Assembly (NCBI GenBank): GCA_027062165.1
Contig: JAMOTU010000018.1
Coordinates: 1 to 13,004, forward strand
From: Candidatus Altimarinota bacterium
GTDB lineage: Bacteria; Patescibacteriota; Gracilibacteria; Absconditabacterales; Absconditicoccaceae
Direction of reading: 5' to 3'
Length of the DNA stretch: 13,004 bases
In this document: positions 6,921-9,148 of the stretch, one piece after another
Layout of the letters: the number at the start of each line of letters is the position of its first letter
Position numbering within the stretch: the first letter of the stretch is position 1
Program-made: the position numbers and the translations under genes
Notes under the pieces: model-generated
What the model saw: only the letters and a program-made list of their open reading frames with translations
Databases searched by the model: none
What the model was told of the DNA's origin: nothing

Positions 6921-8777
6921 ATGATGAGTGAGAAAATAACAGCTTATGTTAGATTTTGCCCTAATTGTTGAGGTATAATTTATGATGACAGATTGAAGGA
7001 TAGTTTAGTTTGTAAAAATTGTTTAGAAAATATTGATGTTGATATTGATATACAATCAGAAAATTTACCTAAATGGTTTTATGTCTTTGACAAGATTAAA
7101 AAGTGAAATCTTCAAGAATATAAAAAGTTTTTTGATAGTTTTTTAGATTTTAAAGAGTTTTTTTATAAAATAACTGATAAATTACCTTGGTCGTTACAAA
7201 ATAGTTGGACAAAAAGAGTTTTTTTAAAAGAAAGTTTTAGTATTATAGCTCCGACAGGAGTATGAAAAACTACATGGTGATTGGTAATGTGATTGTATCT
7301 TTATTTAAAACCTATTTATAAAAATAAAGAAAAAATTTATTATATTTTACCTACTACATTGCTTGCTAAACATACTTATGAAAGATTCGAGGATTATTTA
7401 GAAAAATTTTGTATATTTTCTGGAAAGTGTAAAAAGGATGTGTATGAAGATATTTTGATATATCATGGAAAACTTTCAAACAAACAAAAAAAAGATATTA
7501 AAGAGAGAATTAAAGAATGAAAATTTAAAATTTTATTTACTACGACTAACTTTTTATATAGAAATTTTGATATTTTAAAACCAAACAAAGGTAAATTTCA
7601 GTTTATTTTTGTAGATGATGTAGATTCTCTTTTAAAAACGGCTAAGAATATAGATTATATATTGTCTTTGATGGGATTTTCAGATGATGCTATTCAATTA
7701 GCTTTGCAAATTGTAAAACTTAAAGTTCAATTACCTTTTTTGAAATGAAGTAGATTAGAAGAAACTTTAAATACTATACAAAATCTTAAAAATAAACTAG
7801 AAAAATTAAAAAAATGAGTAGATGCTATTTTGGTAGCTTCTTCTGCTACCGCCAAACCTAAATGATTAAAGATAAAGATTTTATGAGAATTGTTAAATTT
7901 TGAGGTATGAAAATCTAATACTAATTTAAGAAATATAGAAGATATTTATGTAGACCTTGATAATAAATCTTTAAATTTGGTTAAATCTAATTTTGGAGAA
8001 TTTCTAAAATTATATGAGTCGAAATTTGATAAGTTGATAAATATTTTAAATAATTGAATTTTTTGTTTCATACCTTCTGATTGGTGAAAAGAAGAAGTAT
8101 ATAATGTAAAAGATTATTTTTTGAAAAAATGAATAAAATGTGAAGTTTATGAAAATTTGAAAGATGAAACAATAGAACAATTTAGAAAGTGAGATATAAA
8201 AGTATTAATTGGTATAGCTTCTTGGCGTAATCCATTAGCTAGATGAATAGATTTACCAGATGCTGCCAAGTATGCTATATTTTTGTGAGTGCCTAAATTT
8301 GTATTTGATGCTAATATTGCTTATAATCCTAGATGATTAACTAGTATTATTTTAAATTTGCAGAAAGTTTTACCTGATAATATAAAAGAAAAGATAGATT
8401 GGGATAAAAAAATTACTCAATATCTTAAATTTTTAAAGAAAATATCTAATTACACCAAAGAGTATATTTTGAATAATGATTTTATTAAACAAAGACTTGA
8501 AGAAATTTATTGATTTGTTAATAATTTAATAACTCAAGAAGAAATAAAAAATTTATTACTCAATGCTGACGATATTTCTTTTGATGGACAATCTTTTATT
8601 GTAGCTGATATTGCTGCATATTTGCAGGCTAGTGGTAGAGTATCTAGAATGTATGTTGGATGATTGACGAAATGACTTTCTGTTGTATTTGTAGATAACA
8701 AAAAAGCATTTAATAACCTTCAGAAAAGAATAAAATGGTTTTATGATGATTTAAATTTTAAAAAACTTGAAATATAA
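6921..8777 (+). CDS. rgy: Reverse gyrase, helicase half only (split or truncated reverse gyrase)
   Basis: Protein of 618 residues that follows reverse gyrase from its N-terminus. It has a zinc finger with Cys13, Cys16, Cys31 and Cys34. The P-loop is APTGVGKTT (110-118), with its second Gly coded by TGA. Next come ILPTTLLAKH (141-150), KILFTTTNFLYRNFD and FVDDVDSLLK, the DDVD form of the DEAD box specific to this family. SSATAKP (307-313) follows, then RGIDLP near 441 and GVPKF near 456, then an insert of about 110 residues where the latch sits. Last is QASGRVSRMYVGGLTKGLSV from 569. Normal reverse gyrases are about 1,100-1,200 residues, with a topoisomerase IA domain after this point; here tandem TAA TAA stops follow. 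Full-length enzymes add positive supercoils using ATP and mark hyperthermophiles. Nanoarchaeum equitans has a comparable two-gene split. The second TAA shares its last A with the next gene's ATG. Alone, this half can only be an ATP-dependent helicase-like motor; a topoisomerase partner elsewhere is inferred. Confidence 0.9.
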
Positions 8778-8779
8778 TA

Positions 8780-9148
8780 ATGAAACTTTTAGCAAATTTA
8801 TCTGATCCCAAAAGTGTACTTGATGAATTGAAAACAAATCAGCAAAATATTTCTAAAAAGACTATTAATGAAATATCACAAAGACAATGAATAAAAGATA
8901 CTTTGCAAGGAATTTCCGAATGAATATCTCCTTATATAGATTGGGGATTTTTTATAGCATGGACTGCTGCATTAATACTTTTGATGTACAATGGTATACT
9001 TTTGATGATAAAATCTTGAACCGGGGCATCAGAAGTAGCTAAGATTAAATGAAGATTTATGAATATAGCAATTTGAGTAATTATAATATCATCAATTTAT
9101 ATTATTTTAAGGGTTTTTGTTTGGTTTATCAATTATATTGCTTGATAG
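8780..9148 (+). CDS. Small two-helix membrane protein, type IV secretion pilin-like
   Basis: Protein of 122 residues. A polar N-terminus (1-52) precedes a hydrophobic helix at about 55-77. A short hydrophilic turn, IKSGTGASEVAKIKGR (77-92), leads to a second helix at about 94-118, and the gene ends in TAG. This layout, two helices joined by a glycine-rich and Lys-rich loop in the form LLMIKSG....KIKGRFMNIAIGVII, resembles the VirB2/TrbC-like pilins often annotated in CPR genomes, where the loop reads like TSGGNEEKVKKAR. Such pilins are membrane proteins built into secretion or conjugation filaments. No other secretion gene is present, so the assignment rests on topology and loop only; a holin-like or other small membrane protein is possible. 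Its ATG overlaps the tandem stop of the helicase gene, and only 2 nt separate it from the PBP gene, so it belongs to the same transcript. Confidence 0.6.

What the first reader, a model, noticed from the sequence alone, without database searches (positions are those of the whole stretch)
6921..8777. Stand-alone helicase half of reverse gyrase in a UGA-recoded bacterium
The protein carries the reverse-gyrase-specific markers: N-terminal zinc finger, DDVD box, SSATAKP, GVPKF, a latch-sized insert and QASGR. It stops with two tandem TAA codons exactly where the topoisomerase IA domain should start, and the next gene is unrelated. All ATPase motifs look intact, so it does not look like a decayed remnant. 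A comparable split is established for Nanoarchaeum equitans, an unrelated tiny-genome symbiont; one in a CPR bacterium with code 25 would be a separate, possibly convergent split or a transfer. It also implies a hot habitat for a lineage mostly known from moderate ones.
Basis: partly seen in the sequence, partly recalled or inferred. Interest (0 to 1): 0.92.

Follow-up and report, generated by a model that had tools for sequence, protein, structure and literature searches.

The report
Two-gene reverse gyrase in recoded bacteria
A small bacterium that reads the stop codon UGA as glycine carries the motor half of reverse gyrase, the heat-protection enzyme, as its own gene; relatives carry the matching cutting half as a second gene, a division that looks separate from the one known in tiny archaea.

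Summary
The ORF at 6921-8777 (code 25, 618 aa) is a reverse-gyrase helicase half (zinc finger, both motor domains, latch) that stops in the linker before the topoisomerase domain. Its assembly (76% complete, 242 contigs) gave no type IA topoisomerase match at all, so its own partner is unseen. A relative in the same family (G382, 94% complete) has both halves on one contig as separate genes with a PEBP gene between them. More UGA-recoded stand-alone helicase halves (P0002-P0006) and topoisomerase halves (P0122-P0129, P0213) exist. Trees separate them from Nanoarchaeota-type halves (AU p 0.0012 and 5e-18) and the helicase cut lies 9-16 residues further on, so the splits look independent. G000 and G382, the only carriers found in 353 genomes of the class, have the two highest 16S G+C values of 26 family members (60.1%, 56.7%). 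Best reading: helicase subunit of a two-gene reverse gyrase. Not shown: partner in this genome, subunit binding, activity, number of fissions (fused relatives P0031 and recoded P0132 exist).

The parts
6921..8777 (+). reverse gyrase helicase half (618 aa, code 25), stand-alone ORF
   Evidence: AlphaFold2 mean pLDDT 86.0, pTM 0.61; the 11 best PDB matches are all reverse gyrase, but with TM-score at most 0.50 and rmsd 9-20, so domain orientation is not reproduced
6957..7022 (+). N-terminal reverse-gyrase zinc finger (C13, C16, C31, C34)
   Evidence: Pfam zf_Rg 5.5e-9; motif positions
7248..7274 (+). Walker A / motif I APTGVGKTT (residues 110-118)
   Evidence: A110, T112 and K116 invariant in 48 sequences
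7614..7625 (+). motif II DDVD (residues 232-235)
   Evidence: invariant in 48 sequences
7839..7859 (+). motif III SSATAKP (residues 307-313)
8298..8603 (+). latch (about residues 460-561), placed by alignment to T. maritima 389-459
   Evidence: alignment; latch limits from PMC10233626 (passage); GVPK-to-QASGR spacing 115 residues here, 101-116 in the other recoded halves, 92-112 in three fused rows, 23 in Thermosipho P0119; the pattern failed in 3 of 16 rows
8625..8639 (+). motif VI QASGR (residues 569-573)
8745..8774 (+). C-terminal DDLNFKKLEI, end of the half in the inter-domain linker
   Evidence: junction alignment; distances
8775..8780 (+). two tandem in-frame TAA stops; the next gene's ATG begins at 8780

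Best explanation
The gene encodes the helicase subunit of a reverse gyrase made from two separately encoded polypeptides. The helicase half (zinc finger, H1, H2, latch) would open DNA with ATP and, docked on a separately made type IA topoisomerase half, drive strand passage that adds positive supercoils and protects DNA in a hot habitat. The split arose in or near this UGA-recoded lineage in the short linker between the domains, independently of the Nanoarchaeota split; in G382 an unrelated gene now separates the halves, in the window's organism they lie further apart. Shown: anatomy, cut point, partner halves in relatives, separate placement in trees.
For: Identity. Motifs and latch. Two-gene arrangement in G382: helicase half (ATG 11376 chosen; the ORF list starts at TTG 11340) to stop 13070, PEBP-family gene 13109-13693, topoisomerase half 13666-15534, all + strand, the last two overlapping by 28 bases. 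That topoisomerase half scores 576.5 bits on TIGR01054 positions 565-1171; the next best topoisomerase match in the 49 genomes is 296.1 bits and starts near position 703. It keeps TYHRT and DPDTEGE; its model (pLDDT 87.8, pTM 0.81) has its six best PDB matches in reverse gyrases. Further recoded stand-alone halves: P0002-P0006, P0122-P0129, P0213. The seven recoded helicase halves form one clade, 100/98. One clade with Nanoarchaeota-type halves rejected, p 0.0012 and 5.2e-18. Helicase halves end 45-51 residues after QASGR, Nanoarchaeota-type ones 35-36. 16S G+C ranks 1 and 2 of 26.
Against: No type IA topoisomerase was found in G000, although 22 of 24 genomes of this family have one; the two lacking are G000 and the 65%-complete G394. 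TopA and the partner would both have to lie in the missing part, about 6% if independent at 24% each. One search had no positive control. Free trees interleave fused P0031 and P0132 with split rows; a single fission is only 'not rejected' (p 0.36; p 0.352). Seven recoded topoisomerase halves start 4-6 residues later than Nanoarchaeota ones, but the G382 one starts about 3 residues earlier than most of them, so only the helicase cut separates the two groups throughout. Binding and activity are untested.
Confidence: 0.85

Rival explanations
1. Repurposed stand-alone helicase: in the window's lineage the topoisomerase half was lost and the helicase half works alone, for example as a heat-stress DNA-binding or unwinding ATPase.
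For: No topoisomerase half in the 76%-complete assembly; neighbours unrelated.
Against: Stand-alone recoded topoisomerase halves with intact catalytic motifs exist (7 of 7 scanned; trees); the latch, whose known role is to couple helicase and topoisomerase domains (PMC10233626, passages), keeps ordinary length; G382 keeps both halves; ordinary TopA is missing from this assembly too, which points to gaps.
Confidence: 0.09
2. The split is shared with Nanoarchaeota through transfer of already split genes.
For: Nanoarchaeota have stand-alone halves of similar size (P0102, P0097, P0201); P0031, 60% identical over 38% of the window protein, is named Nanoarchaeota archaeon by its source.
Against: AU tests reject one clade (helicase p 0.0012; topoisomerase p 5e-18); the helicase cut differs by 9-16 residues; P0031 is fused.
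Confidence: 0.03
3. Assembly, binning or frame artefact: the topoisomerase part was lost at a join, or the parts are joined during translation.
For: The contig is only 13004 bases in a 242-contig assembly.
Against: P0002 ends at the same residue and four more recoded halves plus G382 end 0-6 residues from it; 7 of 8 recoded topoisomerase halves aligned start with Met in one column; downstream open frames encode a pilin-like protein, a PBP and DnaB, with TGA inside the frames.
Confidence: 0.02

Closest known systems
Split reverse gyrase of Nanoarchaeota (Nanoarchaeum equitans NEQ434 and its partner; here P0097 Nanobsidianus, P0102 Nanopusillus, P0201 Nanoclepta)
   Same: Helicase and topoisomerase halves are separate genes divided in the linker between the domains.
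   Different: Different part of the tree; helicase half ends 9-16 residues earlier; archaeal. The N. equitans proteins themselves were not fetched; the paper on them was not held.
Fused bacterial reverse gyrase (Thermotoga maritima, PDB 4ddt/7fsf)
   Same: Same domains, motifs and latch; best PDB matches for both halves.
   Different: One polypeptide there, two genes here; 25% (helicase model) and 35-36% (G382 topoisomerase model) identical in the structural alignments.
Methanopyrus kandleri reverse gyrase
   Same: Two polypeptides.
   Different: Its cut does not follow the domain boundary (PMC8185306, passage); not compared by sequence here.
P0031 (fused, standard code) and P0132 (fused, UGA-recoded)
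   Same: Fall with the recoded halves in the trees.
   Different: One polypeptide across the linker; both are fragments, 661 and 690 aa.

Membership tests
Reverse gyrase (TIGR01054) | Profile score over the curated cut-off 471.7 | tested here: met
   495.1 bits with half of the profile; the six-frame genome scan gave 443.1, below the cut-off
Reverse gyrase (TIGR01054) | Reverse-gyrase zinc finger, SF2 motor motifs and latch insert | tested here: met
Reverse gyrase (TIGR01054) | Type IA topoisomerase domain in the same protein | tested here: not met
   The frame stops at 8777 before it; hence 'helicase subunit', not whole enzyme
Two-gene (split) reverse gyrase | Both halves encoded as separate genes in one genome | tested here: inconclusive
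   Seen in G382; only the helicase half seen in the window's 76%-complete genome
Two-gene (split) reverse gyrase | The two subunits bind and together add positive supercoils with ATP | not testable with these tools
   needs purified proteins
Nanoarchaeota split reverse gyrase lineage | Common descent with the Nanoarchaeota halves and the same cut | tested here: not met
   AU p 0.0012 and 5e-18; helicase cut 9-16 residues apart; topoisomerase start 4-6 residues apart except in G382

The most novel reading that the evidence does not exclude
Reverse gyrase has been cut, and perhaps rejoined, several times at one linker inside a single lineage of UGA-recoded bacteria, with exchange to a standard-code lineage (fused P0031, named as an archaeal symbiont). 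Tiny episymbionts in both domains would then have arrived independently at a two-subunit reverse gyrase, which suggests that separate control of the helicase part is useful to them.
Probability: 0.3. Interest if true: 0.8.

Novelty: new variant of a known kind. Interest (0 to 1): 0.68.

Why it matters
Reverse gyrase is the hallmark enzyme of life at high temperature, and the split forms that I could find in print are archaeal. A second, separately cut two-gene form in bacteria with a changed genetic code gives a natural comparison of how the helicase and topoisomerase parts couple, with subunits that can be expressed apart. It also marks apparently heat-adapted members of a lineage known mostly from moderate habitats (recalled).

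Tried and rejected
Transfer of a split gene from Nanoarchaeota was tested and rejected. Looking for the partner by way of the PEBP gene gave one PEBP homologue in G000, on contig C84; its surroundings were not read, but no topoisomerase was found anywhere in G000. Searching the class for topoisomerase halves found only G382 (1 of 353 at E up to 1e-110). The zinc-finger family matched 4 of 379 genomes drawn from the phylum: G000 and G313 over the cut-off, G186 and G315 weakly. tRNA counts as a completeness check were ambiguous: G000 18, four relatives 38-41, but the 98%-complete G396 only 22. No Rfam match and no tRNA in the window. P0127 could be the window protein's partner by tree position and because it has the same three source labels as P0002, but nothing ties it to this genome.

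Rows dropped or capped: protein searches scored 7991, 7999 and 7992 candidates and listed the best 120 of 162, 4533 and 133 matches. One search scored at most three candidates a genome. Helicase tree: 243 to 99 rows by identity over 58% with chosen rows kept; P0237, P0103, P0097, P0077, P0002 left out. Topoisomerase tree: 228 to 83 rows by identity over 55%. 16S: 26 of 29 genomes with a match used; G396, G411, G414 (partial or broken matches) left out; G421 was read at a wrong offset (0.419) and corrected (0.504). P0010, P0032, P0033, P0037, also of half length, were not in the AU test groups.

Full report
What is there. The ORF at 6921-8777 on the + strand gives 618 residues in code 25 with 21 TGA read as glycine; at 13 of these 21 positions glycine is the commonest residue in 81 standard-code reference rows. 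TIGR01054 matches it over positions 5-566 of 1172 with 495.1 bits against a cut-off of 471.7; the six-frame scan scored 443.1, below the cut-off. The Pfam reverse-gyrase zinc finger and the T. maritima sequence (1.1e-52) agree. The model has mean pLDDT 86.0 and pTM 0.61; its 11 best PDB matches are all reverse gyrases, though with TM-score at most 0.50 and rmsd 9-20, presumably because the relative placing of the domains differs. By alignment to T. maritima 389-459 (limits from PMC10233626, passages; alignment) the latch is about residues 460-561.

Where it stops. The frame ends in two TAA at 8775-8780, in the linker between the helicase part and the first helix of the topoisomerase part. Downstream are a 122-aa protein resembling T4SS pilins (22.9 bits, Pfam cut-off 26.6), a penicillin-binding protein and DnaB.

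The window's genome. G000 has 1,080,583 bases in 242 contigs, completeness 76.35%; the window is the whole of contig C18. It gave no match to the type IA topoisomerase family, the helicase half plus two weak matches (under 20 bits, helicase part of the profile) to TIGR01054, and nothing to the G382 topoisomerase half at E up to 10 (which had no positive control). The topoisomerase family rang in 37 of 40 relatives searched, UGA-recoded ones included, and in 14 of 14 control genomes, so the search copes with the code. Of the 24 genomes of this family in that call only G000 and the 65%-complete G394 lacked it. Both G000 and G382 have a GyrB-family C-terminal domain. The absence in G000 is weak evidence either way.

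The partner in relatives. All 49 genomes of the family match TIGR01054, but mostly through other type IA topoisomerases (profile 696-1170) and weak helicase matches; strong helicase-half matches are in G000 and G382 only, and a match reaching back to position 565 is in G382 only. Of 353 genomes of the class, the helicase alignment found G000 and G382 (E up to 1e-20) and the topoisomerase alignment found G382 (E up to 1e-110). G382 carries on contig C26, on one strand: a UPF0114 protein, the helicase half (ATG 11376 to stop 13070), a PEBP-family gene (13109-13693) and the topoisomerase half (13666-15534, 622 aa), the last two overlapping by 28 bases. It also has a separate type IA topoisomerase on C4. 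The topoisomerase half keeps TYHRT and DPDTEGE, and the six best PDB matches of its model are reverse gyrases.

More halves. In a collection of 5.8 billion proteins, P0002-P0006 (599-625 aa) are stand-alone helicase halves and P0122-P0129 and P0213 (581-632 aa) stand-alone topoisomerase halves. They carry tryptophan at many conserved glycine columns (9-11 of 18 for the five helicases, 6-14 of 16 for the nine topoisomerases), the mark of UGA-recoded genes called with another code. A search with the recoded helicase alignment added five proteins to those already listed, P0240-P0244 (1084-1093 aa), none with such tryptophans in the motifs checked. Seven of seven topoisomerase halves scanned (P0123, P0124, P0125, P0126, P0127, P0129, P0213) keep the catalytic motifs.

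Independent origin. In the helicase tree (99 rows) the seven recoded halves form one clade (100/98), next to a Micrarchaeota protein (99/91) and mostly bacterial enzymes; the Nanoarchaeota-type halves lie across a 100/100 branch. Holding the two split groups together is rejected: helicase p-AU 0.0012 (7 recoded rows with P0102, P0077, P0097, P0045, P0071, P0104), topoisomerase p-AU 5.2e-18 (7 recoded rows with P0149, P0188, P0201, P0231, P0232, P0172-P0174). These groups were chosen after the first tree, and of the archaeal-type rows only P0097, P0102, P0201 and P0232 carry an archaeal name. Counted from QASGR, the seven recoded helicase rows end after 45-51 residues and the six Nanoarchaeota-type ones after 35-36; unnamed P0032, P0033 and P0037 end after 39-42. 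Seven of the eight recoded topoisomerase halves aligned start in one column, 4-6 residues later than Nanoarchaeota ones; G382 and P0122 start about 9 residues before that column, so for the topoisomerase half the difference is not uniform.

How many fissions. P0031 (standard code, fused) and P0132 (recoded, fused) fall with the recoded halves. In the helicase tree P0031 sits inside the split rows, beside P0001, at 85/84; in the first topoisomerase tree it is sister to seven split rows at 94/86, with P0132 and P0213 outside; with P0132 and P0213 masked, G382 moves to the base and the starred set has 11 rows, one more than these ten. The free tree needs three changes between fused and split among 13 labelled rows; one clade of all split halves is not rejected (helicase p 0.36; topoisomerase p 0.352). 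One fission is possible, and so are several, or re-fusion.

Heat. Of 26 family genomes with a usable 16S gene, G000 (60.1%) and G382 (56.7%) have the highest G+C; the third is G383 (53.7%), the other 23 lie between 46.4 and 50.9% (G421 corrected). The window is 24.4% G+C. Two carriers in the top two places has odds of 1 in 325 by chance (my arithmetic; it ignores kinship, and the two 16S genes are each other's nearest among nine compared, 86.8%). Raised rRNA G+C is named as a temperature adaptation in the abstract start of PMC13185595 (search listing). Of 174 reverse-gyrase species with a known optimum, 89% are above 65 C (PMC6878951, section 6 read).

Name.

Literature. Searches of the held library: 'reverse gyrase' with Gracilibacteria 0 papers, Absconditabacteria 0, SR1 and genetic code 0, Patescibacteria 4, Patescibacteria and split 1, candidate phyla radiation 10; 'split reverse gyrase' 6. 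PMC6878951 (passages; sections 6 and 15 read) names split enzymes of Nanoarchaeota and Methanopyrus and potential new ones in a supplementary figure that I did not see. PMC8185306 (passages) describes the N. equitans and M. kandleri cases; PMC3491384 (passages) the N. equitans gene. PMC9789041 (passages) lists MAGs without reverse gyrase and omits its one Patescibacteria MAG, so reverse gyrase in that phylum is implied in print. PMC9793634 (passages) has no occurrence of 'reverse gyrase' in the main text. In these searches I found no report of a split reverse gyrase in bacteria; most of the listed papers were not opened, and nothing outside the library was searched.

Verdict. It is a new variant of a known kind: a two-gene reverse gyrase, bacterial, UGA-recoded, and apparently cut independently.

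Noticed in passing
P0078 (1076 aa, protein collection): A full-length fused reverse gyrase with tryptophan at 4 of 17 and 6 of 16 conserved glycine columns, so probably UGA-recoded; it groups with P0050, named Campylobacterota, and P0059 (100/96 and 100/99, unmasked), which suggests a second, separate acquisition by recoded bacteria.
   Followed up: partly
L057:13109-13693: A PEBP-family gene sits between the two reverse gyrase halves in G382 and overlaps the start of the topoisomerase half.
   Followed up: partly
L057:13666-15534: By eye in the alignment, the recoded topoisomerase halves and fused P0031 lack the four-cysteine motif that the two Nanoarchaeota rows show at the same place; in the G382 model this stretch is of low confidence.
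   Followed up: no
L004 (G313): A member of another family of the same phylum has the reverse gyrase zinc finger in an open frame of 1208 residues without TGA, so apparently a fused enzyme in standard code; only its helicase part was in the fetched stretch.
   Followed up: partly
P0010, P0032, P0033, P0037: Four more helicase proteins of half length (584-595 aa), unnamed, near the Nanoarchaeota-type halves in the tree (94/96) and ending 36-42 residues after QASGR; possibly further split enzymes.
   Followed up: no
window 8780-9148: Small membrane protein resembling T4SS pilins, just below the Pfam cut-off.
   Followed up: no
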